Assembly: GCA_002385265.1 (NCBI GenBank)
Contig: DGDD01000018.1
Coordinates: forward strand, 1 to 37,655
DNA: 37,655 bases
Direction: 5' to 3'
Origin: Chitinophagaceae bacterium UBA3961
Lineage (GTDB): Bacteria > Bacteroidota > Bacteroidia > Chitinophagales > Chitinophagaceae
Part shown: positions 8,410-20,636 of the stretch, one piece after another
Layout of the letters: each line of letters opens with the position of its first letter
How positions within the stretch are numbered: position 1 is the first letter of the stretch
Notes under the pieces: generated by a model
Database searches by the model: none
What the model was told of the DNA's origin: nothing
The model's input: only the letters and a program-made list of their open reading frames with translations
Position numbers and translations under genes: made by a program

Positions 8410-10932
8410 TTAGAAGGCCAATCGGAAACTGAAAAATACTCCAAAGCGACTTACTTTTTCTACCGGCAGTGGTCTTGGAAACACGCGCCATACCAAATCC
8501 ATTCTAAATACTTTGAAGATATTGTCTACACCCGTTCCAATTTCCATATATGTTTTCCCGTCGAGGGTTGAAAATTTATAGGCAGAATTGGCTGGCATGT
8601 TCAATGCTTTATTGGCATCTGATAAGCTACCCCATAACAATTTGGTATTCCAGAATTGGCGGAATTTTAATTTTCTAGTCAATGGAATGTAACGGAACAA
8701 GCCGTTTCCAATATTATGTTCGAAATTGATCCCTGCATATTGATCGTGCAGAAATTCAAATCGGTTCATCAAACTAAACGCGTATTTATTGTAATAGTAA
8801 ATTTCATTACCTGGTGCCACATCCAAGAACATATAAGGAAGTGTACCATATGTTTTGCCGGCAAATACATTGTAATAGATACTACCCAGTGGTGGGATCT
8901 TCATGTAGTCGGAAACACTACCGGAAATTTTGGTGTAGTTGTAAGCACTGTTCAATACTCCCGACATTCCCTTCGTGAGTTTGATTTCCGATATTGGATA
9001 AGGACTTCCCAAACTTGTTCTGAAGAAGGTGTTCTCAAGGTACTTTTCCAAGTATGCAAAGCGCACTTGTATGCTTGTTTCAAAAGTATTCAAGGCCTCA
9101 CCTGACTTTACCGAGAATAATGACTTTTCAGGTAAGTTCATCACCGGATTGTAGATCTTTCTATCTGCACCCAAGGTTACACTAAAACCATTTTTCCACT
9201 GTTTGTATATCGATGCCTTTCCTTCTTCCATCATTAAGAATTTGATGGGCACTCCGGTTTTTCGAATGGCTAAGGCAAAGATGTTATCCTGACTAATTTC
9301 AGCATAATAGGTTTGTGCACGGTCGAAGTCTTTACTATAAGAAGCATATAGGGAAGTCCTTGGGCTTCGTTTGAGAATATACAATGCTTCTAATTTGCCT
9401 TTAAACTGTTTGTCTTTGAATCCATAAGCAACGTATCCATGTAAGTTCAATCGCTTGTTAAAGCCGGAGTTGGTTCCCAAGTCCCAACGCAAACGCATTC
9501 CTTCGTAAACGTTGGCATAGATCCAGTTTTGCCATGGACCGATTTGGTAATTACCGGTATTTAAATAGCCTGTTGCTAAGAAGTTCAGTAGCTTGGTAGT
9601 TTTTTGGAACGAAGGGAGCGATAGTAAAGTGTCAATTGTTTTATAGATCTTTTGCTCTGAAACGGTTAAGGGTTCATGCCTTGCTTCAACCCAAAAACTA
9701 TCCGGAGTATGTTTGGCGTTTTCGGTTACAATGGTTTCTTCAATCAGGTTGTTTTTGGCAAGTTCGTTTACAACGGAGCTGTCGTTGAAAACAATGTTTT
9801 CGTAGGTGGTTGTTTTTCTTCCGATAACAGAAAGTGTTTTCTCGCCGGTGAGAGAAAGATCAACTACAAATTTATCACGTGAGAGAAACCAAGTACCATC
9901 GGGCATTAATTTGAACTCTTGGATCAAGCTGAGTTTGTCAACATAGTTGATATTCGCTTCTTTTGATAGCCGCAGGTTCATTTTTTGAACAGCCCAAGTA
10001 GTATCATGAACCCAACAGTCGCCTTCGAAAGTATTTTCACCCACCCGTTTTGGTGTAAAGCTCATATGAATAAGCCGACGGTTGTTCACAAACTGACTGT
10101 CGAGCACTTTGTAGCGGTAGTAATTATCACCATTATCACTCAAGGGGCTAATAAAGAGTTTATCGAAAACCGGAATGAAATTGCTGTAGAAGTTTACGTT
10201 TTGGTCCATACCTCCCAGAAACTGCAATACACTTTCATTAGAAACTCCCAAAGTTTTCGTTCCTTTTATTATTTCTCTTCTTCGCTTGGGGTCTTTTTGA
10301 TAGTAGTAATCAGAAATGGCTTCCGTAAGATATACAGGTAGAAAAGGGCGGCCTTCTTCGGTTGTATCTACATTGTCGAATACGAATCCGAAGTTTTTAA
10401 TAATCGGGTATTTCTGCCATTTTTCTCGTTTTACATTCTTAAGGTCTATTTCCAATTTGTTATAGAGTTCATACGAGAAGTTTTCGAACCTGTAGCGATC
10501 GTTGAGTGGTTTCTTTTTTACAATTCTTCTCCACATCAATAAACCTCTATCAATTTTTTTCTTTACCACCACTTCGTTGGTGAATTTTCCTCTCACTAAA
10601 TGGATAGATATGTCGAGAACATTGTTTTTAACTCTACTGAGCAAGATTGAATCGAAGACAAGGAAATAGTCTTCATACCCAACATAGGTAATGACTAAGG
10701 TATCGGTGGGCCATTCTTGAAATCGGAAGGTGAAAGCTCCTGCAGAGTCGCTCAAACGGCCGGCGGTGCCATTTTTAAATTTCATAGACGCGAAGGGAAT
10801 CAGCTCTTCACTGTGCGCGTCCTTGATTGTACCTTTTAAGACTTTATTTTGTGAGAATAAGTTCTTGGTTGTGAGAAGGTTAAGGATAATGAAAAATGCT
10901 ATAAGTACTTTCTTAAGTAACGATCCTGCCAT
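8410..10932 (-). CDS. DUF5686 outer-membrane protein with N-terminal carboxypeptidase-regulatory-like domain
   Basis: 840 residues. The signal peptide ends near LTTKNLFSQ. Next is a CarboxypepD_reg-like beta sandwich (LKGTIKDAHSEELIPFASM ... VITYVGYEDY, about residues 33-110). A long DUF5686 region follows, rich in the aromatic/charged alternation of beta strands. It ends in a phenylalanine (FFSFRLAF), the usual mark of outer-membrane barrel proteins folded by Bam. Such proteins are common in Bacteroidota, without an established function. No SusD partner or TonB plug is present, so it is not a standard SusC. A TATTTTTG box lies four bases before the start codon. Confidence 0.87.
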   Translation of the reverse strand: MAGSLLKKVLIAFFIILNLLTTKNLFSQNKVLKGTIKDAHSEELIPFASMKFKNGTAGRLSDSAGAFTFRFQEWPTDTLVITYVGYEDYFLVFDSILLSRVKNNVLDISIHLVRGKFTNEVVVKKKIDRGLLMWRRIVKKKPLNDRYRFENFSYELYNKLEIDLKNVKREKWQKYPIIKNFGFVFDNVDTTEEGRPFLPVYLTEAISDYYYQKDPKRRREIIKGTKTLGVSNESVLQFLGGMDQNVNFYSNFIPVFDKLFISPLSDNGDNYYRYKVLDSQFVNNRRLIHMSFTPKRVGENTFEGDCWVHDTTWAVQKMNLRLSKEANINYVDKLSLIQEFKLMPDGTWFLSRDKFVVDLSLTGEKTLSVIGRKTTTYENIVFNDSSVVNELAKNNLIEETIVTENAKHTPDSFWVEARHEPLTVSEQKIYKTIDTLLSLPSFQKTTKLLNFLATGYLNTGNYQIGPWQNWIYANVYEGMRLRWDLGTNSGFNKRLNLHGYVAYGFKDKQFKGKLEALYILKRSPRTSLYASYSKDFDRAQTYYAEISQDNIFALAIRKTGVPIKFLMMEEGKASIYKQWKNGFSVTLGADRKIYNPVMNLPEKSLFSVKSGEALNTFETSIQVRFAYLEKYLENTFFRTSLGSPYPISEIKLTKGMSGVLNSAYNYTKISGSVSDYMKIPPLGSIYYNVFAGKTYGTLPYMFLDVAPGNEIYYYNKYAFSLMNRFEFLHDQYAGINFEHNIGNGLFRYIPLTRKLKFRQFWNTKLLWGSLSDANKALNMPANSAYKFSTLDGKTYMEIGTGVDNIFKVFRMDLVWRVFPRPLPVEKVSRFGVFFSFRLAF

Positions 10933-11006: not shown

Positions 11007-11038
11007 TTTGGTGGAATCAATCAATTTATCTTACTTTG
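11007..11038 (+). promoter_or_regulatory. Predicted promoter of the XrtN operon
   Basis: TTTG at 11007-11010, a 20-base spacer, and TTACTTTG at 11031-11038 (one mismatch to TAnnTTTG). Transcription would start near 11045, just before the ATG at 11057. The right half of the -7 box is also the left arm of the inverted repeat at 11033-11049. Confidence 0.6.
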
Positions 11039-11057
11039 AAACACAAAGTGCTTTTTA
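11031..11057 (+). promoter_or_regulatory. Candidate operator, copy 1 (ACTTTG-N5-CAAAGT)
   Basis: The inverted repeat ACTTTG / CAAAGT (11033-11038 and 11044-11049) is separated by five bases and followed by GCTTTTTA. The whole 27-base block recurs at 12035-12061 with three mismatches. It overlaps the predicted -7 box, so a bound protein would block transcription. The winged-helix protein encoded at 11720 is the obvious candidate ligand (inference). Confidence 0.6.
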
Positions 11058-11710
11058 TGCAAGAAAATCAGACTTCTTTGGATGCTTTACAAGACATCAA
11101 ACAGATGATGGAGCGATCTTCTCGCTTTATTTCTTTGAGCGGCTGGAGCGGGATTAGTGCCGGTTTGGCGGCTTTAGCGGGTGCTTTTATTGCCAATAGC
11201 CGAATGGCTCATTATATTCCGAGCAACCAACAATCGGATTATAGTTTGAGAGGCATGGCGGTAAATCAGTCTTCCTACTATGATCTATTGATAGAATTGA
11301 TCGCAATTGCCATTGGAGTGTTTGTGATAGCATTTGTAACAGCATTCTTTTTTACCTATCGAAGAAGTGTGTCTAAGAATACGCCAATTTGGAACAGCGT
11401 GTCGCAACGTATGGTGTGGAATGCTTTGTTGCCAATTTTGGTGGGAGGAATAGTAATTTTGCGCGTCCTATATTTAGAGTCCTATACTTTGGTAGCTCCA
11501 CTCTGTTTAATTTTTTACGGATTGGCCTTGTTGAATGCTTCTAAATATACCTTAGGGGAAATTCGCTGGTTGGGCTATGCGCAAATTGTATTGGGTTTGA
11601 TCAATCTCTGGAATCCCGGATGGGGCTTGGTTTGTTGGAGCATAGGTTTTGGAGTGATGCATATTGTATATGGTTTTATTATGTGGTGGAAATACGAGCG
11701 AGCCGATTAA
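11057..11710 (+). CDS. Multispanning membrane protein paired with a winged-helix regulator
   Basis: 217 residues with a soluble N-terminal helix (MQENQTSLDALQDIKQMMER, then SSRFISLSGWSG) and about five to six hydrophobic segments, including one pair near the C-terminus rich in Trp. I recognise the MMERSSRFISLSG segment as typical of uncharacterised Bacteroidota membrane proteins encoded next to small winged-helix regulators, but no function is known to me. I chose the ATG at 11057 because the predicted promoter and transcription start lie just upstream; the frame is open to a TTG-like start region near 10979, inside the promoter. It is followed nine bases later by the regulator. It may be a sensor or anti-regulator at the membrane (inference). 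Confidence 0.75.
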   Translation: MQENQTSLDALQDIKQMMERSSRFISLSGWSGISAGLAALAGAFIANSRMAHYIPSNQQSDYSLRGMAVNQSSYYDLLIELIAIAIGVFVIAFVTAFFFTYRRSVSKNTPIWNSVSQRMVWNALLPILVGGIVILRVLYLESYTLVAPLCLIFYGLALLNASKYTLGEIRWLGYAQIVLGLINLWNPGWGLVCWSIGFGVMHIVYGFIMWWKYERAD

Positions 11711-11719
11711 AATAGAAAC

Positions 11720-12019
11720 ATGAAGAATCCGATTTCACAATTAAACAAAGTGTTTGAGAGCAGGATCCGTTTGGGTGTCATGAGCATCTTAATGGTGAAT
11801 GAGTCTGTTAATTTCAATGATCTAAAGCAGATGTTGGAACTAACCGATGGCAACCTCGCGTCGCATCTTACCACTTTAGAAGAACAGGGATTCATACAAG
11901 TAACCAAGGGCTTCATAGGTAGAAAAACCAATACTACCTATACTGCTACAAAGGCCGGCCAACAAGCATTTAAAGACCATTTAACAGCCCTTGAAAACAT
12001 GATCAAAGGAGTAAAGTAA
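11720..12019 (+). CDS. Winged-helix transcriptional regulator (HTH_34 / MarR-ArsR-like fold)
   Basis: 99 residues, a single DNA-binding domain. SQLNKVFESRIRLGVMSILM is the first helical pair. NFNDLKQMLELTDGNLASHL is the helix-turn-helix with recognition helix DGNLASHLTTLEEQGFI. The wing is VTKGFIGRKTNTTYTATKAG. This matches the PF13601 group of small regulators that bind as dimers. There is no ligand domain and no cysteine set for metal sensing. It sits between the membrane protein and the XrtN substrate gene. A palindromic box before the first gene and again before the third suggests that it controls its own operon. Confidence 0.85.
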   Translation: MKNPISQLNKVFESRIRLGVMSILMVNESVNFNDLKQMLELTDGNLASHLTTLEEQGFIQVTKGFIGRKTNTTYTATKAGQQAFKDHLTALENMIKGVK

Positions 12020-12034
12020 ATTTTTTTTGTCATT

Positions 12035-12061
12035 TCACTTTGAAAAACAAAGAGCTTTTTA
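12035..12061 (+). promoter_or_regulatory. Candidate operator, copy 2 (ACTTTG-N5-CAAAGA)
   Basis: Matches the 11031-11057 box at 24 of 27 positions. CTTTG at 12038-12042 and CAAAG at 12048-12052 flank AAAAA, again followed by GCTTTTTA. It lies between the regulator stop and the ATG of the VIT protein at 12073. The left arm reads TCACTTTG, a poorer -7 box, and no -33 box stands at the right distance. It could be a second binding site or an internal promoter. Confidence 0.55.
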
Positions 12062-12072
12062 AATCAAAAAAC

Positions 12073-14517
12073 ATGAAACAGATAAAAACACCGGCTTTAG
12101 TGGGTTTTCTTTTCTTATTGGTATCTATTACGATGTATATCGTTGGAGGAACAGATCTTGCTAAATCCGATCAATCAGGTTTTGTAACTGTAAACTTCGG
12201 GTTGACCGGCATTTATTGGACTATTTACATGATTTCAGGGCGCGACTCCGACCAAAAATCATTGATCCAAAACATACTCATCGCCCTTTTCTTTTTCAGC
12301 GCGCATACTTTTAATAGAGAGCTTATTGTTTTCGATCATTGCACACCCTGGTTTATGGCGCTTCAGTTTTTAGGGGTGGCTGCGTTATTGCTTGACTTCT
12401 TCGCCGACCGATTTCCGAATTGGCTGAAATGGGTTCAATTTATAACATTGTCATTGGCGCTTTTGTGTTGGTTGTATATGACGGTATATGTTACCCCATT
12501 TTATTTGATTGGATTGATTGGTGTTATCGCACTAGGGCTAGGGCTGCATATTTTCGTTCCAATCTTACTGTTCATTCGAACCTTATTCATATTAAAAAAC
12601 AGATTCAATGAAAAGCAGTATCAGGTTGTGTTTTGGTCTATTTCAAGCACCGTAGTTTTGTTATGTGTTCTTTTTGTGATACAATGGAATTTACTGAGTC
12701 AAAGTATTGGCAGAACCGTTCGCGAGGCGAGGGCTTATGCTAAAGATGGAGTTCCGGCTTGGATATCTGTTGTGAAAGACTACCGAGATGAATGGTTATT
12801 TTCAGACTTCGTGAAAATGGATATTGAATACCAAGTATCAAAGAATAGTTTTTCACTTTGGGGTGAACCACGGTTCAACGACCAAATCGTGAAACTTCAC
12901 AATCCCTTAATTATGATCGCTTCTCTTTTCTCAACTGATCCTCTTCTGGAGTCGGATAAAATTCATATTCTAAAGGCGATCTATGGATATGTTGGTGTGC
13001 AAGAACTTCGGTTGTGGAGTGGTAAGGATCTCTATACTGAAGCTGTTACCACGTCAATTCAATTGTGGCCTAACAATGGCATTCAATATACAGAACATAC
13101 TTTTCAAGTAACCAATGGTTCAGAAGAGCGTTGGCAAGGACAGAATGAAGCGATCTATATTTTCCAATTACCCTCAGGCGGCACCGTTACTTCTTTGAGT
13201 CTTTGGGTCAACGGAAAAGAAGAAAAGGGTGTTCTTACTACCAAATCAAAAGCCGCCGAAGCATATAAAAATATTGTAGGGGTTCAACGTCGTGATCCAT
13301 CTTGGGTTGAATGGCGAGAAGGGAATAAAGTGGCAGTAAGGGTGTTTCCTGTTAACAATAAAGAAAGCCGTGTTTTCAAAATTGGTATTACAGCTCCCAT
13401 GAAAAAGGAGGCAATGCGATGGAGCTATCTTCCATCTACTTGGGAAGGCCCGGTGAAGAAAAGTACTCGATATCAAACTCGTGTTTTGTTTGCACAAGAT
13501 CCGGTAAACGTTCATGTAGCACATGCTTCGATGGTAGCAAAGAATCAATATGAAGTAGATGAGTTGCCTTCTTCCAATATCACTATTGAAATGGATGCTC
13601 CCGAAAAATTGCAAGCAGAATTTGGGTACGATCAACACCGTTACGTACTTAGTAACTATCTGCCCTCAAGAATGAGCTTCGATCCCCAAGATATCTATCT
13701 AGATATCAATGCCAGTTGGACCAACCAAGAGATCAGTGCCATGAAAACCTTGTTTGCAAATAAATCAATCTATGTGTATCAAAAGGAAATGGTGAAGTGG
13801 GAGCCTAAAAACGGAGACAAGGTCTTGAATCAATTGCGACAACAAACGATCAGTTGTTTCCCTTTTTTCTTGATTAAAGATCGAGAGCATTCATTGATTG
13901 TTACAAAGCCCTCTCTTTCCAATATTGCGATCGAAGACCTAGAAGAATCTGATTATGCAATTAAGTTGAAAGCAGATCGAAGCAATGGTCAGCCGGTGCG
14001 ATGTTTCTTGTTGAATGCTCAATCGTCCGGGTACTATAAAACACTGATTGATAGCCGCTATTTGATTCCTGAAATAGGGAATACAGATGATTTGAAAGAA
14101 TTGATAGTTCAAAAGCAGTTTGCAGTATCCGAAGAGTCGGATCAGAAAATTGTGATCCCTGAACTGGGGGTTCAAATACAAGAAGACAGTTTGCCTGTTC
14201 AGCATGCGGCTACTGATCATATTTATAGACTGTTTCAATACAATCAAATACTTCGAAGTGCCGCAACCGATTCTACTGCTATTGTAAGGGCTGAAAAAGC
14301 AAATGTGGTAAGCCCGGTATCAAGCCTAATCGTTTTGGAGTCGGCGCAAGATTACAAAGATCAGGGCATTGATACCGATCAAAAGGGACTCGGGAATGCA
14401 GGAATCCAATCAAAAGGGGCTGCCCCGGAACCCGAAGAGTGGTTGCTGATCATTCTTTTCTGTGGAACCCTGGTTTACTGGTACTTCAGGAAAAAGAAAC
14501 AGATTACAACTGCCTAA
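12073..14517 (+). CDS. XrtN-system VIT domain protein with PEP-type C-terminal sorting signal
   Basis: 814 residues. The first 200 or so form seven to eight membrane helices. A periplasmic part follows with a VIT domain at about 320-445 (AIYIFQLPSGGTVTSLSLWV ... KSKAAEAYKNIVGVQRRDPS ... NKVAVRVFPV). A later stretch beginning DIYLDINASWTNQEI resembles a degenerate von Willebrand A domain. The C-terminus is a tripartite sorting tail: PEPEEW at residue 785, a hydrophobic helix (LLIILFCGTLVYWYF) and a basic end (RKKK). This architecture matches the Bacteroidota family defined as the partner of exosortase N, which is encoded next. It is expected to be cleaved at the PEP-like motif. The ATG at 12073 is preferred over a TTG at 12040 that lies inside the operator box. 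The role of the mature protein is unknown. Confidence 0.88.
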   Translation: MKQIKTPALVGFLFLLVSITMYIVGGTDLAKSDQSGFVTVNFGLTGIYWTIYMISGRDSDQKSLIQNILIALFFFSAHTFNRELIVFDHCTPWFMALQFLGVAALLLDFFADRFPNWLKWVQFITLSLALLCWLYMTVYVTPFYLIGLIGVIALGLGLHIFVPILLFIRTLFILKNRFNEKQYQVVFWSISSTVVLLCVLFVIQWNLLSQSIGRTVREARAYAKDGVPAWISVVKDYRDEWLFSDFVKMDIEYQVSKNSFSLWGEPRFNDQIVKLHNPLIMIASLFSTDPLLESDKIHILKAIYGYVGVQELRLWSGKDLYTEAVTTSIQLWPNNGIQYTEHTFQVTNGSEERWQGQNEAIYIFQLPSGGTVTSLSLWVNGKEEKGVLTTKSKAAEAYKNIVGVQRRDPSWVEWREGNKVAVRVFPVNNKESRVFKIGITAPMKKEAMRWSYLPSTWEGPVKKSTRYQTRVLFAQDPVNVHVAHASMVAKNQYEVDELPSSNITIEMDAPEKLQAEFGYDQHRYVLSNYLPSRMSFDPQDIYLDINASWTNQEISAMKTLFANKSIYVYQKEMVKWEPKNGDKVLNQLRQQTISCFPFFLIKDREHSLIVTKPSLSNIAIEDLEESDYAIKLKADRSNGQPVRCFLLNAQSSGYYKTLIDSRYLIPEIGNTDDLKELIVQKQFAVSEESDQKIVIPELGVQIQEDSLPVQHAATDHIYRLFQYNQILRSAATDSTAIVRAEKANVVSPVSSLIVLESAQDYKDQGIDTDQKGLGNAGIQSKGAAPEPEEWLLIILFCGTLVYWYFRKKKQITTA

Positions 14518-14526
14518 TTCATCTCT

Positions 14527-15831
14527 ATGCAAACCATTTGGAAAAAAGGGTGGAGTTGGATACTACTTTTGTCTGCTATACCATCTGTGTATATCCTGCA
14601 CATTTATTTGAGTTGGACGAGTGCTTCCACTATTCTTGGGCTGATCTCTTGTTATATTGTTGGAGCAAATTCCAAAGAAAAGGGATGGGGCCGCGAGTAT
14701 GCGCTTCTAGCGATCGTTGCTCTTTTGCTGACGCTGTTTATACCTGTAAAGACCTTGTATTTTTTCAGTTGGTCATTTACTGTGCTATTCTTTTGGGCAA
14801 TGGTTACCGGACCGAAGTCACCTTTATTATTGCCGATTCTCTTTTTCATGTCGCCCTTTTTTCAATTCGTAGTACAGGTATTCAGTTTTCCCATTCGCTT
14901 GCAGCTTAGTAGCTGGGCGGGTTCTATACTGAAACACTTAATAAAAGATTTGAAGGTAGAAGGAAATGTGATCTCAAATTCCGGCACTGAGTTTTCAATT
15001 GATGAAGTGTGCATGGGACTCAATATGGTAGTTGTTAGTCTATTGTTAGGTGTTGTGATATGGAATCTAGGTGCTCGTTTTCAAAGAAAATCGCCTCCAC
15101 TTCATCACCTTCCATTCTGGCTTTATTTTTTGATACTGATGGTGTGTAATGTGGTGATGAATTTGTTTCGCATTGTTGCAATTGTATTATTTAAGTCGAT
15201 GCCGGGCACCTGGCATCATGAAGCAATTGGCCTGATTAGTTTACTTGTTTATGTGGTGCTTCCATTGATTTGGATGGCTCGTTTTAGAAAGCCAACAAAT
15301 TCGGTAGCCAGTAAAAGTAGCCCTACACACCATGCACTTAACTATGCTTTACCGCTCTTTTTAATTTTAGTGGCAGTTAAAGTGATTCAACGCGATCAGC
15401 AGGCTTCTATTCCAAATCCCCTTTCGTCGAAAAACTTTGAAGGGTACCAAGTGAATTCCGTTAACAACACCACTTTGGAATTAATGGATCAGTCAAGTTT
15501 GGTGTATGTAAAAGCGAATCCCAATTGGTATCAAGCAGATCACAATCCTCAAATTTGTTGGAAAGCAAGTGGGTATGTACTTGGCGATATCAAGTATGTG
15601 TCCATCAATGGGAAAAAATGCTATCAGGGTGTACTGAAGAAGGGAGCTGAATTGATGTACACCGTATGGTGGTATTCAAATAAGAAAGACCGCACTTTGA
15701 GCCAATTCGAATGGCGGTGGAAGCAATTTACCGGAGCGCCGCCTTTTAACTTAATCAATATAACGGTTAAAAGAGAAGCGGATTTGCAAGCTGCCTGCTT
15801 GAAATTTGAACAAGTAAAAGAACTTAATTAA
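14527..15831 (+). CDS. xrtN: Exosortase N with fused C-terminal EpsI-like domain
   Basis: 434 residues. About eight membrane helices carry the exosortase triad: C162 in DEVCMGLNMVVVS, R215 in NLFRIVAIV and H231 in WHHEAIGL. Exosortases are inner-membrane cysteine transpeptidase-like enzymes that cut PEP-CTERM-type tails and probably hand the protein to an acceptor. After one more helix near residue 275-290 there is a periplasmic part with HNPQICWKASGY (H339, C344). This resembles the H-x-P-E-x-C-x-x-x-x-G-W motif of EpsI/DUF3485, and YTVWWYSNK resembles the later YYWY motif. It starts nine bases after its presumed substrate gene. Calling it XrtN rests on the partner's architecture and on the Bacteroidota context. 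Confidence 0.87.
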   Translation: MQTIWKKGWSWILLLSAIPSVYILHIYLSWTSASTILGLISCYIVGANSKEKGWGREYALLAIVALLLTLFIPVKTLYFFSWSFTVLFFWAMVTGPKSPLLLPILFFMSPFFQFVVQVFSFPIRLQLSSWAGSILKHLIKDLKVEGNVISNSGTEFSIDEVCMGLNMVVVSLLLGVVIWNLGARFQRKSPPLHHLPFWLYFLILMVCNVVMNLFRIVAIVLFKSMPGTWHHEAIGLISLLVYVVLPLIWMARFRKPTNSVASKSSPTHHALNYALPLFLILVAVKVIQRDQQASIPNPLSSKNFEGYQVNSVNNTTLELMDQSSLVYVKANPNWYQADHNPQICWKASGYVLGDIKYVSINGKKCYQGVLKKGAELMYTVWWYSNKKDRTLSQFEWRWKQFTGAPPFNLINITVKREADLQAACLKFEQVKELN

Positions 15832-15841
15832 AACGTTGTAT

Positions 15842-16069
15842 ATGAAACTAAACATTCATGGTCCTTGGTTTAAAGAAACCGGCCTCGGGTTTCTGCCCGT
15901 TAATTTGGCAGGAATGGTAGTGGCAATTGCCGTCCTGATTTTCAATGGCATCTATTTTATGGCGGTCGATAAAAACTCCCATAGTGCCAGTGATACCTTG
16001 ATCAACTTTTTTGTGGGATTTACCTGCGCTGCTTTTTGGTATCAATGGATTGCCAAAAGAACTTCTTAA
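15842..16069 (+). CDS. Small membrane protein of the XrtN operon
   Basis: 75 residues with two predicted helices: NLAGMVVAIAVLIFNGIYFMA, and DTLINFFVGFTCAAFWYQWIA near the C-terminus. The sequence HGPWFKETGLGFLPVN precedes the first helix. I do not recognise a named family. It begins ten bases after xrtN and ends eight bases before the lipid kinase gene, so co-translation with both is likely. It may be a subunit or stabiliser of one of them (inference). A TTG two codons earlier is a less likely start. Confidence 0.7.
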   Translation: MKLNIHGPWFKETGLGFLPVNLAGMVVAIAVLIFNGIYFMAVDKNSHSASDTLINFFVGFTCAAFWYQWIAKRTS

Positions 16070-16077
16070 TTTCGGAT

Positions 16078-16443
16078 ATGGTAAAATTCATCTTGGCAAG
16101 ATTTCAAAGTTTCGGACCTGCTTTTAAAGGGCTTTTTGCCTTTGTAAAGAAAGAGGGACAAGCTAAAATTCATCTCTTAGCTACCATCGTTGTAATAGCT
16201 GCGTCCTTTTATTTTCAAATAACAAAAGCAGAATGGATCGCTGTTGTATTTGCCATAGCGTTGGTATGGGCTACCGAAATGTTGAATACAGCCATTGAGA
16301 AACTGGTTGATTTTTGTTCAGATGAACGATTGCCAATTCTGAAGTTCATAAAAGATGTGGCAGCGGGTGCGGTGTTGGTTGCAGCTTTTGCAGCTATTGC
16401 AGTAGCACTGATTATTTTTCTACCTTATTTATCGCAATTATGA
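16078..16443 (+). CDS. dgkA: DgkA-type diacylglycerol / undecaprenol kinase
   Basis: 121-residue integral membrane kinase with an N-terminal amphipathic helix (FQSFGPAFKGLFAFVKKEGQAKIH) and three membrane helices. The conserved catalytic block is EMLNTAIEKLVDFCSDE, and KDVAAGAVLVAAFAAI completes the third helix. Gram-positive relatives phosphorylate undecaprenol and proteobacterial DgkA uses diacylglycerol; the substrate here is undetermined. The ATG at 16078 is used; an in-frame start at 16036 lies inside the preceding gene. Its stop overlaps the next start (ATGA). Its place in an exosortase operon is worth noting, since lipid carriers are possible partners of exosortase processing. Confidence 0.88.
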   Translation: MVKFILARFQSFGPAFKGLFAFVKKEGQAKIHLLATIVVIAASFYFQITKAEWIAVVFAIALVWATEMLNTAIEKLVDFCSDERLPILKFIKDVAAGAVLVAAFAAIAVALIIFLPYLSQL

Positions 16444-17114
16444 AACTTCTAGTAAACTTCGTTAAAGACCTTTGGGCCACACCCGTTTTTCGAAATCTAT
16501 TTTGGAATGTGGTGGTAGCCATTTTGTTTGTTGCTTTTCGGATTTGGTATACCACTAGCAATGCCTATTCTATGTTGCTGTGGAATTTGTTTCTCGCTTT
16601 GATTCCATATGGGGTTTCGCAATGGTTGCAATTAAGGCCGGCATTAGCTTCCAACAAAGCCTTATTTGTTTTCTTTTTTGCAGTTTGGTTGGCCTTTGTG
16701 CCCAATACTTTTTATCTGGCAACCGATATGTACCATCTCGGTGAAGTGTCGGGAATTTCATTGTGGTACGATCTTATCATGTTGATCCTTTTCGCATGGA
16801 TTGGAATTTATGTGGGATTCGTAAGCATGTTGCAAATGGAAAGCTTAACTATTTGTTACTGGGGGCAATTCTGGAAAAGAGCGTTCATGCCAATTATGAT
16901 TGTACTGAATGCTATCGGAATCTACTTAGGCAGGGTTTTACGATTCAATAGTTGGGATGTGATTCATGAGCCTATGCAGTTGGTAGCAGCTTTGCTAGAC
17001 TTGTTCAATCATCCGCTTCAACACAAATCGGCTTGGGTATTGATCGCCGGGTTTTCTGTTTTTATTGGACTTGTATATAAAAGCATTCGGACCAGTTCGG
17101 TGTTCCAAAAATAA
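16440..17114 (+). CDS. DUF1361 integral membrane protein
   Basis: 224 residues with six to seven hydrophobic segments. The DUF1361 hallmark is seen in AVWLAFVPNTFYLATDMYHL, followed by SLWYDLIMLILFAWIGIYVG and IGIYLGRVLRFNSWDV. The biochemical role of the family is unknown. It overlaps dgkA by four bases and is the last gene of the XrtN operon, ended by the terminator at 17113. Whether it takes part in sorting is unknown; it may just share transcription. Confidence 0.88.
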   Translation: MKLLVNFVKDLWATPVFRNLFWNVVVAILFVAFRIWYTTSNAYSMLLWNLFLALIPYGVSQWLQLRPALASNKALFVFFFAVWLAFVPNTFYLATDMYHLGEVSGISLWYDLIMLILFAWIGIYVGFVSMLQMESLTICYWGQFWKRAFMPIMIVLNAIGIYLGRVLRFNSWDVIHEPMQLVAALLDLFNHPLQHKSAWVLIAGFSVFIGLVYKSIRTSSVFQK

Positions 17115-17143
17115 AAAAGGCGTCTCAACGAGACGCCTTTTTT
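17113..17143. terminator. Bidirectional terminator between the XrtN operon and the TolB-like gene
   Basis: Stem GGCGTCT / AGACGCC (17119-17125 with 17131-17137), a five-base loop, six T on the right and six A on the left. It can therefore end transcripts from both convergent genes. Confidence 0.92.
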
Positions 17144-17159
17144 ATTATAGTTTGTTTTT

Positions 17160-20100
17160 TTAGAAGTCAACTCCAATTGCGAAGTAAACCAATGGTTTGC
17201 CTCTGAAGAATCCGCTCATATCCCAACCTGCATCTAATTTCATGAAATATCCCAAGAGCATACTTCTAGCACCAAAACCATATCCTCCAACAAAGGGTCC
17301 AATACCACCTGCTCTAATTCTGATCTCGGTAGAACCATCAGTGTTTGGATAAATGATCTCAGGTCTTTTGATACTTCCATAAGAACCATTCCAAGCAGAA
17401 CCCATATCAATGAATTGCACCAATTGGAAGTTTCTCAAGAATGCATTATTGATAGGCTTGTTAAACAAGGTTTGGAATACAGGGAATCTGAATTCTGAAT
17501 TGAATACCACTGCATTGTTTCCGTTCGCTACGTTTTGATTGAAACCACGCATGTTTACGGCCAATGATTGATACGCATAGTAATCATTCGATGGCTGAGG
17601 ATCTCTGCTATAGCGTGGGAACATCCAACCATCTACACCACCCAAGTAATACAAGATCTTTTGATCGCCCCAACTGAAATCAGCTGCTGCACGACCGGCC
17701 CAAATGAAGTTGCGATAAATAGGGTAGTAGTATCTGAAATCGGTACCGAAGTTGAAAGAAACACGCCCTTTAGGAGGATTCACACTGTTCTTTGGATCGT
17801 TCATTCTGCTCATGAAATCGGCGTACACTTTAAAGCGCATACCGTTCCAGATATTCTGCGTTTTCAAAATGGCATTGTCGTGAACGTATTCCAATCGAGC
17901 CAATGCATAGGTTTGCTTGTTAAGATCTTTTGTTGTTAAAGCCGAAGTGTCAAAGTCACTGGCTCTAACTACAATCTTGTCATAGCGTATACCGGCAGAA
18001 ATCTTCAAGCTTCTTACTTTATCGAAAGGATATTTGATGATACCTTGATACAAGTTAGAGAATTGCTTTCCTTCGTAAGGCTTGGTAGTATTGTTGATAC
18101 CGGTTACTTGACCAATATTGGTTTGACGATAATACACCAACGAATAATCCATTCTCTTTTTCAAATAGTCGATTCTCGCAAACCATTCACCACCACCGTC
18201 AAAAAGCGATTGATTGATGGATACGAAATTAGTTCCTACACCGCCGCTGCCTACACTCACTCCGGCTCCATTTCCACTTAATAGCGGCAAACGTAAACCA
18301 CCGGTGAAACGAATGTCTTCAAACAAGTCGAACACAGAAGCTTTCAGCATACTGTTAAAGCTGCCACCGCTTTGCAATACTACCGGTAATGAACCAGTGT
18401 AAGGTTGAAGGCGGTTGATCAATACATCGTTATTGAACAAGGCGGCACTAAAGTTATCGGCAGAGAATTTCAAATTGTAGTCAAAACGCTTTGCCTTCTT
18501 CACCAAAGGAATTTCCGCGGGTTCAGGGTTTTTCTTTGCGTCCGTTTTTTCTTTAGCCTCTTCTTCCTCGAATCCGGTATCGAAGAAACTACCCGATTTC
18601 TTAGTAGTATCCTGCCCTTCCGGCGCATCCCTAAACTCTATTTTTTCAGCCTCTTGTAATTGTTTTTCCGTTATTGTTTTCTTTCGATATTCAGTAGGAC
18701 GCGGATTCACGTTCCTGCGCTTCAATGTAGCTTCGTCTACCTTCAATCGATATAAGTATTTTGCAGTTCCTTGCTGACGCACTTCACTTACCATTCCATT
18801 GTCACCGGCAATTTTTGTTTCTTTTAAACTGCTTTGATAATTGGTTAAAGAGAATACATAAGTAGAGTCGTTGGTTACCGAATAAGTAAAAACTGTATCC
18901 GGAGCATCTTTACCCCAGGCTTTTAAAGTAGAATCTAATTCTTTGTCGGATGGATTTCTTAAGCGTTCGTCACCTACCACATATACGCTGTCTAAGCCCG
19001 CTCTTTCAGTAGTAAAGAAGCCGGCAAAACGGTTTCCAATACCACTTTCATCTGTTACAAACGTGAAGTGATTCACATTGTACTGCATCGGATAGCGAGC
19101 ATTGCCGTATTTCAAATTGGTAAGCTGACTTACTTGGCGGAACTCGCTTTTATTGTAGATATCAGTCAAGAATACATTGTAACGATCGCCGGGTACCGTG
19201 GTATCTGCACTCTTTGCATAAGGTGAAGGGCGGTTAGAAACGAAGATGATTCCTTGCTTGTTTGGAAAAGCTACAAAGTTAGGATCAAGATCGGCAAATA
19301 CGTCGTTGGTTACTTGTTCGAATGTGTTCTTATCAAGTTTGTAAATAAAAATATCTGACTGGCCTTTGCGAACGGCACTCATCAACAGGGTGTTTTCGTT
19401 CAACATGTATTTCATGTCTTGAACCGTCTCGAATTCAGGCAGGTCAATTTTGATGCGTTTAAAACGGGCCACGGCATCGTATACAAACAACTTCACTTTT
19501 CCTTCTGCCCAATACACTACCGCTAAGCGAGTACCTTTTCCATCCCATGCCAATAGTGGATAGTTTGGATTTTTTTCACCATCAGGCGTGCGTATACCTG
19601 TTTTCAATAATACTTTTCTGTCGATCATGTTTTCATACAACACCACACATGATTGGCCCTTGATGTATTCAACTACGGCATAGGTCTGGCTTCTAGGCGC
19701 CGGATTGGGCGTGAACTTCAAGAAGTCGTGATTGTCTTTCACTTCTTCCACCAGCGTTACATTCCCTTTTGGGATATCTCTTCTGCCTTTCAAATCCAAT
19801 TCGTATTGTTCTTCAAAGTATTTCATGAAATTCTTCACGAAATCTTTAAACTTCATTTTGCAAATACGGCTAGAGGCACTGTTCAAGTTTCTGTAAACGC
19901 GAGCGAGGTATAAAAAGTAGGTAACGTTTTCTTTCTTGTGTTTTAGTTCGAAATAATGCCAGAAAGCATGTCCTGCTAAATCCGGTTTTTTATAAGCGAA
20001 CTGATAGAAGTTTTTAAACTCGCCACTTAGAATAGCTGATTTCAGTTGATCGTCAAGGTCGGCGCTCCAATTCTCAGCCACATATTGTACATAACCATCT

Positions 20101-20636
20101 ACCAGCCATTTAGGAAGATCAAGTAGGGCTTGGTTGGTAGCGAATTCGCCTAAGTCGTCTCCAAAAAGAATGTTTTCAACCAATATGCGAGCAATGCCCT
20201 GACGAATTTGCTTGCGCAAATGGGCGTGATCACCATCGAAATAAACGATCATCTTATTATTAACCAGCTTTGTAACGCCACCGGTGGTTTGCCAATCGAT
20301 CGACAATCCAATATTGGATTGCTCCATTTCGTTGAAATTATTATAGATCACGATGTTGGCGCGGCGTTGCAAACCGTATTCTACAAACTGCTCAATTCCG
20401 GGTAATTCTTCTTCAGCTACTTGCATTACAAAATCGGCTAATGGCTTTCCGTTTTCGTAGTAGTAAGTGTTGAAATTAGACGTTTGAAGGTATTGCCACT
20501 TGAATTTGCGGTATTGAACCCGGTTCTTTCCAAACTCCACAGTATTCACCTGACCCACAGCAGTAGCTGACACAAACAAAAGCATCAAAATCCCAAAAAA
20601 ATGTTGTGCGCTTAACTTAATCTTTTGAACTTGCAT
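17160..20636 (-). CDS. TolB-like propeller protein with C-terminal outer-membrane barrel
   Basis: 1158 residues. A signal peptide ends near VSATAVGQ. Residues about 35-300 resemble the MA-type metallopeptidase fold: LPKWLVDGYVQYVAENW looks like the second zinc-site segment. No HExxH is visible, and the equivalent helix reads RKQIRQGIARILVEN, so it is probably inactive. Residues about 330-640 are WD40/TolB-like propeller blades (LLAWDGKGTRLAVVYWAEGK, DPNFVAFPNKQGIIFVSNRP). An acidic linker with EEEEAKEK follows. The last 400 or so form a surface-antigen-like barrel with terminal PLVYFAIGVDF. Bacteroidota annotations call such proteins 'translocation protein TolB', but no Tol-Pal genes are here and the function is unproven. 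Confidence 0.82.
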   Translation of the reverse strand: MQVQKIKLSAQHFFGILMLLFVSATAVGQVNTVEFGKNRVQYRKFKWQYLQTSNFNTYYYENGKPLADFVMQVAEEELPGIEQFVEYGLQRRANIVIYNNFNEMEQSNIGLSIDWQTTGGVTKLVNNKMIVYFDGDHAHLRKQIRQGIARILVENILFGDDLGEFATNQALLDLPKWLVDGYVQYVAENWSADLDDQLKSAILSGEFKNFYQFAYKKPDLAGHAFWHYFELKHKKENVTYFLYLARVYRNLNSASSRICKMKFKDFVKNFMKYFEEQYELDLKGRRDIPKGNVTLVEEVKDNHDFLKFTPNPAPRSQTYAVVEYIKGQSCVVLYENMIDRKVLLKTGIRTPDGEKNPNYPLLAWDGKGTRLAVVYWAEGKVKLFVYDAVARFKRIKIDLPEFETVQDMKYMLNENTLLMSAVRKGQSDIFIYKLDKNTFEQVTNDVFADLDPNFVAFPNKQGIIFVSNRPSPYAKSADTTVPGDRYNVFLTDIYNKSEFRQVSQLTNLKYGNARYPMQYNVNHFTFVTDESGIGNRFAGFFTTERAGLDSVYVVGDERLRNPSDKELDSTLKAWGKDAPDTVFTYSVTNDSTYVFSLTNYQSSLKETKIAGDNGMVSEVRQQGTAKYLYRLKVDEATLKRRNVNPRPTEYRKKTITEKQLQEAEKIEFRDAPEGQDTTKKSGSFFDTGFEEEEAKEKTDAKKNPEPAEIPLVKKAKRFDYNLKFSADNFSAALFNNDVLINRLQPYTGSLPVVLQSGGSFNSMLKASVFDLFEDIRFTGGLRLPLLSGNGAGVSVGSGGVGTNFVSINQSLFDGGGEWFARIDYLKKRMDYSLVYYRQTNIGQVTGINNTTKPYEGKQFSNLYQGIIKYPFDKVRSLKISAGIRYDKIVVRASDFDTSALTTKDLNKQTYALARLEYVHDNAILKTQNIWNGMRFKVYADFMSRMNDPKNSVNPPKGRVSFNFGTDFRYYYPIYRNFIWAGRAAADFSWGDQKILYYLGGVDGWMFPRYSRDPQPSNDYYAYQSLAVNMRGFNQNVANGNNAVVFNSEFRFPVFQTLFNKPINNAFLRNFQLVQFIDMGSAWNGSYGSIKRPEIIYPNTDGSTEIRIRAGGIGPFVGGYGFGARSMLLGYFMKLDAGWDMSGFFRGKPLVYFAIGVDF

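What the first reader, a model, noticed from the sequence alone, without database searches (positions are those of the whole stretch)
11007..17143. Compact exosortase N operon with its own substrate, regulator and lipid kinase
Seven plus-strand genes sit with gaps of 8-53 bases or overlaps between a clear promoter and a bidirectional terminator. The set includes an exosortase with intact Cys/Arg/His and, directly before it, a VIT-domain membrane protein ending in PEPEEW, a helix and RKKK. Known: XrtN and its VIT partner are defined as Bacteroidota families, but the physiological role, the acceptor of the cleaved protein and any accessory subunits are, as far as I know, undescribed. Inference: the flanking membrane protein, winged-helix regulator, 75-residue membrane protein, DgkA and DUF1361 protein form one functional unit, a dedicated one-substrate sorting system with transcription control.
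Basis: partly seen in the sequence, partly recalled or inferred. Interest (0 to 1): 0.75.

Follow-up and report, generated by a model that had tools for sequence, protein, structure and literature searches.

The report
Exosortase N under a winged-helix regulon
A bacterial protein-sorting enzyme and its single predicted substrate appear to be switched by a widespread, apparently undescribed DNA-binding regulator that also controls other membrane genes, which gives a first handle on what this sorting system is for.

Summary
In detail: seven plus-strand genes with gaps of 9, 53, 9, 10, 8 and -4 nt, a TIGR04477 VIT protein ending PEPEEW-helix-RKKK, a TIGR04476 exosortase N with invariant C162/R215/H231, and a bidirectional terminator. 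VIT-XrtN is the constant core (VIT in 90 of 91 loci) and the one-substrate claim holds (one tail match in each of 42 genomes). But the neighbours are not an XrtN-only unit: membrane protein + HTH_34 lie beside XrtN in 34 of 91 loci, DUF1361 in 11, the 75-residue protein in 2, and regulator-CreD-DgkA-DUF1361 blocks exist without XrtN. What recurs is control: a palindrome ACTTTG-N5-CAAAGT overlaps the regulator's own promoter and also precedes VIT or its block in 40 of 48 intact loci with no adjacent regulator; 37 of 38 such genomes tested carry the regulator elsewhere. In 98 family genomes operator and regulator coincide (62 of 68 with, 1 of 30 without). Best reading: XrtN-VIT is one target of a broader HTH_34 envelope regulon. 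DNA binding and tail cleavage are unshown.

The parts
11007..11038 (+). Promoter of the cluster: TTTG (11007-11010), 20 nt, TTACTTTG (11031-11038), Bacteroidota -33/-7 type
   Evidence: sequence; TTG 25 nt before ACTTTG in 51 of 120 homologous sites; sigma-A consensus TAnnTTTG seen in a passage of PMC9723704; the -33 box is recalled
11033..11049 (.). Operator palindrome ACTTTGAAACACAAAGT, overlapping the -7 element; 7 nt lie between it and the start codon of gene 1
11057..11710 (+). Gene 1: unnamed 217-aa membrane protein, predicted N-terminal helix plus six long helices; found paired with HTH_34
   Evidence: no Pfam or NCBIfam family
11720..12019 (+). Gene 2: HTH_34 (PF13601) winged-helix protein, 99 aa, proposed binder of the palindrome
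12037..12053 (.). Second operator copy (1 mismatch) between gene 2 and the VIT gene
12073..14517 (+). Gene 3: XrtN-system VIT protein (TIGR04477), N-terminal helices, VIT plus VWA-like domains, C-terminal sorting tail. ATG 12073 preferred over TTG 12040, which lies inside the operator (inference)
14425..14499 (+). Sorting tail PEPEEW - hydrophobic helix - RKKK
14527..15831 (+). Gene 4: exosortase N (TIGR04476); C162 codon 15010-15012, R215 15169-15171, H231 15217-15219
15842..16069 (+). Gene 5: 75-aa membrane protein, found at only one other of the XrtN loci (L115)
16078..16443 (+). Gene 6: DgkA-type lipid kinase (PF01219)
16440..17114 (+). Gene 7: DUF1361 membrane protein (PF07099)
17110..17146 (.). 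Bidirectional intrinsic terminator shared with the convergent gene at 17160-20636

Best explanation
The locus is an exosortase N/VIT-substrate pair carried as one target of a broader winged-helix regulon. Shown by comparison: gene 1 (membrane protein) and gene 2 (HTH_34) form a fixed pair; a palindrome ACTTTG-N5-CAAAGT(-RCTTT) overlaps the -7 region of their own promoter and precedes the VIT-XrtN genes at most loci, whether or not the regulator is adjacent. Inferred: HTH_34 binds the palindrome as a dimer and represses its own operon, VIT-XrtN and other envelope genes (CreD, DgkA-DUF1361, an unnamed ~168-aa membrane protein, MpaB-like, DUF2809, DUF4153); the membrane protein is the sensor or anti-repressor that relieves repression on an envelope signal. 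Induced XrtN then cuts the one PEP tail in the cell, that of the VIT protein. Because this substrate is also held by predicted N-terminal transmembrane helices, cleavage cannot release it; it would instead free the C-terminus of a periplasmic VIT-VWA domain for joining to an envelope acceptor (acceptor unknown, inferred from exosortase models).
Against: No binding, expression or cleavage data. 8 of 48 intact loci without an adjacent regulator show no operator at the threshold (one of them, L093, has two regex copies). In the window alone, matches with up to 2 mismatches are not in excess (4 against 2.96 expected). The window's VIT-proximal copy has one mismatch, and with up to two mismatches the own-genome count (3 forward, 3 reverse) is below its reversed control (5, 9). 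For the 17-mer alone the own-genome count equals its control (2 and 2). 6 of 68 regulator-bearing genomes lack an exact 22-mer and one regulator-less genome has two. Regulator and operator share ancestry in the sampled genomes, so the profile is not a set of independent events; near-identical loci remain (83 clusters at 85% among 90 XrtN sequences). Repression rather than activation rests only on overlap with the -7 region; the sensor role of gene 1 rests only on pairing. Whether CreD is elsewhere in this genome was not searched.
Confidence: 0.78

Rival explanations
1. Dedicated system: all seven genes serve XrtN and form one functional operon.
For: Tight spacing and one strong terminator; all 11 loci with DUF1361 beside XrtN also have the adjacent regulator pair.
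Against: Gene 5 in 2, DgkA in 10, DUF1361 in 11, regulator pair in 34 of 91 loci (2, 9, 9 and 30 of 72 with long flanks). Regulator's membrane partner in 68 of 98 family genomes, XrtN in 7. Regulator-CreD-DgkA-DUF1361 blocks in genomes without an XrtN hit.
Confidence: 0.1
2. The palindrome is a site for another regulator or a general promoter decoration, and HTH_34 merely shares neighbourhoods with it.
For: No binding data; the half-site CTTTG resembles the -7 consensus TAnnTTTG; one regulator-less genome (G331) has two sites and six regulator-bearing ones have no exact 22-mer.
Against: 62 of 68 against 1 of 30 genomes; palindrome within 110 nt before gene 1 in 33 of 34 loci and before it in 52 of 60 further reads, by a strict window; rare elsewhere: 118 sites in 98 genomes, reversed control 1.
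Confidence: 0.12
3. The VIT tail is only a membrane anchor and XrtN has another role or substrate; no cleavage of VIT occurs.
For: The substrate already has predicted N-terminal membrane helices, unlike ordinary exported PEP-CTERM proteins (recalled); cleavage has not been shown.
Against: Invariant G, P-E-P and W columns in 54 aligned tails; exactly one such tail in each of 42 XrtN genomes; adjacency in 90 of 91 loci.
Confidence: 0.15
4. VIT-XrtN is a passive cargo that landed downstream of a regulated promoter; operator association is a by-product of insertion.
For: The block exists without XrtN, and VIT-XrtN occupies the place of CreD in this window.
Against: Operator directly before VIT in 38 of 48 loci without any adjacent regulator.
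Confidence: 0.08

Closest known systems
Exosortase N (NCBIfam TIGR04476) with XrtN-system VIT protein (TIGR04477)
   Same: Both proteins score far over the curated cut-offs; the pair is adjacent in 90 of 91 loci.
   Different: The model names seen speak only of the pair; the operator, the regulator and the link to CreD and DgkA genes are added here.
MSEP-CTERM protein (TIGR04286)
   Same: The VIT region matches it weakly (60.9 bits).
   Different: Below its cut-off of 150.
CreBC-CreD envelope system of gamma-proteobacteria (abstract of PMC4689548)
   Same: A CreD family (PF06123 on the one member scanned) is in the neighbourhood of 11 of 91 XrtN loci and follows the same regulator in relatives without XrtN (by BLAST).
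   Different: No two-component system: a one-component HTH_34 protein with a membrane partner; no CreD in this window's cluster.
Inter-alpha-inhibitor heavy chain 1 (PDB 6fpy)
   Different: About 12% identity; the bacterial protein has N-terminal membrane helices; the metal-site DxSxS (recalled) is replaced by D-x-N with an invariant W (66 of 66); coupling chemistry unknown.
XrtF of Flavobacterium johnsoniae (passages of PMC10936215)
   Same: A Bacteroidota exosortase with a neighbouring system protein; deletion reduces surface colonisation and biofilm.
   Different: Different exosortase family; that paper leaves its substrates to future work.

Membership tests
Exosortase N (TIGR04476) | Score over the curated cut-off | tested here: met
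   306.5 bits, cut-off 200
Exosortase N (TIGR04476) | Catalytic Cys, Arg and His of exosortases | tested here: met
   C162, R215, H231 invariant in the 9 aligned sequences, window included; the catalytic roles are recalled
Exosortase N (TIGR04476) | Cleavage of the partner protein's tail | not testable with these tools
   needs mass spectrometry
XrtN-system VIT protein (TIGR04477) | Score over the curated cut-off and VIT domain | tested here: met
   708 bits, cut-off 250; PF08487 47.3 bits, cut-off 26.5
XrtN-system VIT protein (TIGR04477) | PEP motif, hydrophobic helix, basic end | tested here: met
   helix in the model, though the hydropathy scan did not flag it at its threshold
Canonical VWA domain with MIDAS | VWA fold | tested here: met
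Canonical VWA domain with MIDAS | DxSxS metal motif (recalled) | tested here: not met
   D544, N546 and W549 invariant in 66 of 66; S548 in 45 of 66
CreBC-CreD system | CreD in the cluster | tested here: not met
   no PF06123 hit among the seven proteins; CreD elsewhere in the genome not searched
CreBC-CreD system | CreB/CreC two-component regulator in the cluster | tested here: not met
   the only regulator hit among the seven proteins is HTH_34
HTH_34 winged-helix regulator (PF13601) | Score over the gathering cut-off | tested here: met
   100 bits, cut-off 27
HTH_34 winged-helix regulator (PF13601) | Binds the palindrome | not testable with these tools
   inferred from co-occurrence
EpsI-like domain (PF11984 DUF3485) at the XrtN C-terminus | Profile match | tested here: inconclusive
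   3 of 9 members match at E <= 10, best E 0.025

The most novel reading that the evidence does not exclude
Bacteroidota possess an undescribed envelope regulon run by a membrane-protein/HTH_34 pair acting on ACTTTG-N5-CAAAGT, in which VIT-XrtN, CreD, DgkA-DUF1361 and several unnamed membrane proteins are interchangeable or shared targets; within it XrtN converts a membrane-held VIT-VWA protein into a form covalently tied through its C-terminus to an envelope polymer or lipid, a bacterial parallel to the sugar-coupled heavy chains of inter-alpha-inhibitor.
Probability: 0.35. Interest if true: 0.8.

Novelty: new variant of a known kind. Interest (0 to 1): 0.62.

Why it matters
XrtN seems to be known by name only: in the held library, full-text searches for XrtN with exosortase, exosortase N and its two model accessions found no paper. 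Placing it in a defined regulon with a 17-bp operator turns 'what is it for' into tests: find the signal by measuring one promoter, delete one small regulator to switch the system on, and read the tail by mass spectrometry. It links a sorting enzyme to CreD, an envelope-integrity protein in Stenotrophomonas (abstract of PMC4689548), and to a lipid kinase, and it offers an operator that groups otherwise unnamed membrane genes.

Tried and rejected
Gene fusion of gene 1 and HTH_34 in L152: rejected, the open frame runs through a stretch of N. A second XrtN substrate in G393 (112-aa frame): rejected as a separate protein; it is the end of a VIT gene cut by the contig edge, directly before XrtN. 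Sigma-70 promoter scan: uninformative, 19 found against 22.1 expected. Solved-structure search for gene 1: no match better than E 0.96. Terminator between HTH_34 and VIT: only a weak fold, -5.9 kcal/mol, not claimed. EpsI-like domain: inconclusive. Paper searches: CreD with Bacteroidetes listed papers matched mostly through words like 'credit', judged from titles and counts; HTH_34, motif strings, XrtN and VIT-domain terms gave none; two searches showed 10 of 76 and 10 of 214 papers, none on this subject by title; one search listed 8, of which I saw passages of two. The 25 of 296 phylum hits to the XrtN model were not all used as XrtN, since only 4 pass the cut-off.

Rows dropped before counts: L073, L074, L075 and L080, duplicates of L083, L093, L096 and L086, leaving 91 of 95 loci; near-identical ones remain. 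Absences include contigs that end too early: 75 of 91 loci have 6.5 kb before XrtN. In one search, eight loci with cut or short VIT genes, and L142 without one, were left out, giving 82. The tree has 90 of 91 loci. The scan of genome contigs kept the best 80 of 166 relatives. Tail profile A3 used 53 of the 83 tails listed plus L163, and was run on 42 chosen XrtN genomes; one search took 38 chosen genomes without an adjacent regulator. Trans-operator neighbourhoods were read for sites I chose, not all 118; L266 gave no gene there. Family names for neighbours rest on clustering with Pfam run on one member each or on BLAST. An earlier count said 35 of 36 for the palindrome before gene 1; the count is 33 of 34.
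Full report
1. The observation. Gene 3 is a TIGR04477 protein (708 bits, cut-off 250) with a VIT domain, gene 4 a TIGR04476 exosortase N (306.5, cut-off 200), gene 2 an HTH_34 winged helix, gene 6 a DgkA-type kinase and gene 7 DUF1361; genes 1 and 5 hit no family. The own genome holds one XrtN and one TIGR04477 protein. C162, R215 and H231 are invariant among the window's XrtN and eight relatives of 21-34% identity to it. A 17-pair terminator with tracts on both sides closes the cluster.

2. Neighbourhood. VIT lies next to XrtN in 90 of 91; the exception is a 3-kb contig. Gene 1 and gene 2 occur together in 34 of 91, never one without the other; DgkA in 10, DUF1361 in 11; gene 5 in 2. Restricted to the 72 loci with long flanks on both sides: 30, 9, 9 and 2. 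A CreD family is in the neighbourhood in 11 loci, an unnamed ~168-aa membrane protein in 13, DUF4153 in 8 (Pfam on one member each). On a tree of 90 XrtN sequences the adjacency of genes 1-2 needs 11 changes, at least 8 forced by well-supported branches, and 9 when loci with short upstream flanks and no pair are set aside, so the link has been made or lost repeatedly.

3. The operator. Across the 91 loci (1.69 Mb) there are 120 copies with the end bases relaxed (97 strict), against 0.7 per shuffle, and all 120 lie 2.3 to 7.2 kb before XrtN, where the VIT gene and its block start. They occur in 34 of 34 loci with and 41 of 57 without an adjacent regulator (the 57 include cut contigs), among the latter Chitinophaga, Dyadobacter and the two loci L069 and L071 from another family. 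To avoid circularity I trained a matrix only on the 30 sites before gene 1 and tested other regions: at least 10 bits before VIT in 38 of 48 loci without an adjacent regulator and 17 of 34 with one; 0 of 82 shuffled; 17 of 784 other genes, the top 16 of which are CreD, the 168-aa protein and other genes of the block before VIT. Counting the first gene of the block, 40 of 48 loci without an adjacent regulator have it (74 of 82 in all, where the remaining 34 contain the training sites). A TTG stands exactly 25 nt before ACTTTG in 51 of 120 sites, the place of a -33 box.

4. Who reads it. Of 98 genomes of the same family, 68 have gene 1 and 63 have the extended operator ACTTTG-N5-CAAAGT-N-CTTT: 118 sites, against one for the reversed pattern. 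Operator and regulator coincide: 62 of 68 with, 1 of 30 without (my tally; Fisher p 7e-18; related genomes, so not independent). In 60 gene-1 loci read (30 each, the window among them) HTH_34 follows gene 1 in 59, the other being cut by a contig end; an operator stands before gene 1 in 52 by a strict window, and a further one after HTH_34 in 47. Of 38 XrtN genomes chosen for lacking an adjacent regulator, 37 have exactly one gene 1 elsewhere. HTH_34 is the DNA-binding protein of the pair; its motif DGNLA-x-H is invariant in 29 aligned sequences. Binding itself is inferred. Within this one genome the operator is not statistically striking: 17-mer 2 against control 2, up to two mismatches of the 22-mer 3 and 3 against 5 and 9, window 4 against 2.96 expected. 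The case rests on comparison.

5. The regulon beyond XrtN. Unlinked operator sites that I chose in relatives, most of them without an XrtN hit, stand before genes that elsewhere flank XrtN: the 168-aa protein (L261, L277), MpaB-like proteins (six loci), DUF2809 and DgkA-DUF1361 (L279), and also before a serine hydrolase (PF00144 in L262) and small proteins that look membrane-bound; some other targets (a radical SAM protein, an ABC transporter) fit less well and may be chance. In five genomes without an XrtN hit (L275, L289, L290, L291, L294) the block holds operator, gene 1, HTH_34 (for L291 seen in L186), operator, then CreD-like, DgkA and DUF1361 genes, in varying order and sometimes with others, and ends at the same convergent long gene as the window's cluster. 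VIT-XrtN-gene 5 stands here where CreD stands in L275, L289 and L294. In this genome three sites match within one mismatch: before gene 1, before VIT, and before a ~110-aa membrane gene on another contig.

7. Mechanism and doubts. Most likely the HTH_34 protein represses its own operon and VIT-XrtN at the -7 box, and the paired membrane protein relieves this on an envelope signal. CreD loss damages the envelope in Stenotrophomonas (abstract of PMC4689548), and loss of another exosortase, XrtF, reduces biofilm in Flavobacterium (passages of PMC10936215), so an envelope or surface role is plausible. Direction of control, signal, acceptor and cleavage are all unshown. Not in print as far as these searches reach: searches found no paper; most subscription papers and all preprints are outside that library.

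Noticed in passing
L163:1-3983 (G393:C295): XrtN preceded by the cut end of a VIT gene whose sequence before the PEP tail resembles ordinary VIT-VWA proteins (by eye, recalled) rather than TIGR04477, suggesting a swapped substrate lineage.
   Followed up: partly
L076, L077, L093, L094, L098, L099, L107, L162 upstream of VIT: Two operators about 55-70 nt apart with, by eye, a hairpin and T-run between them, as if a short leader with its own terminator precedes the VIT gene.
   Followed up: no
L117 and L114: VIT gene broken: in Chitinophaga costaii (L117) two pieces are separated by about 1.6 kb; in L114 only a C-terminal piece and an antisense fragment match.
   Followed up: no
window 14527-15831, residues about 325-411 of XrtN: A second invariant set (H339, P341, C344, W345, W381-Y383) in the C-terminal half, possibly an EpsI-like domain fused to the exosortase.
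   Followed up: partly
L169:1146-1514 (G000:C229): An unlinked ~110-aa membrane gene of this genome carries the operator shortly before its ATG; no Pfam family.
   Followed up: partly
L083 and L150: XrtN loci titled Williamsia and Beijerinckiaceae group inside Bacteroidota on the XrtN tree; probably mislabelled or contaminated assemblies.
   Followed up: no
window 8410-10932 and 17160-20636: Divergent DUF5686 gene and convergent 1158-aa gene have relatives near XrtN in 12 and 11 of 91 loci; the latter also borders the block without XrtN.
   Followed up: partly
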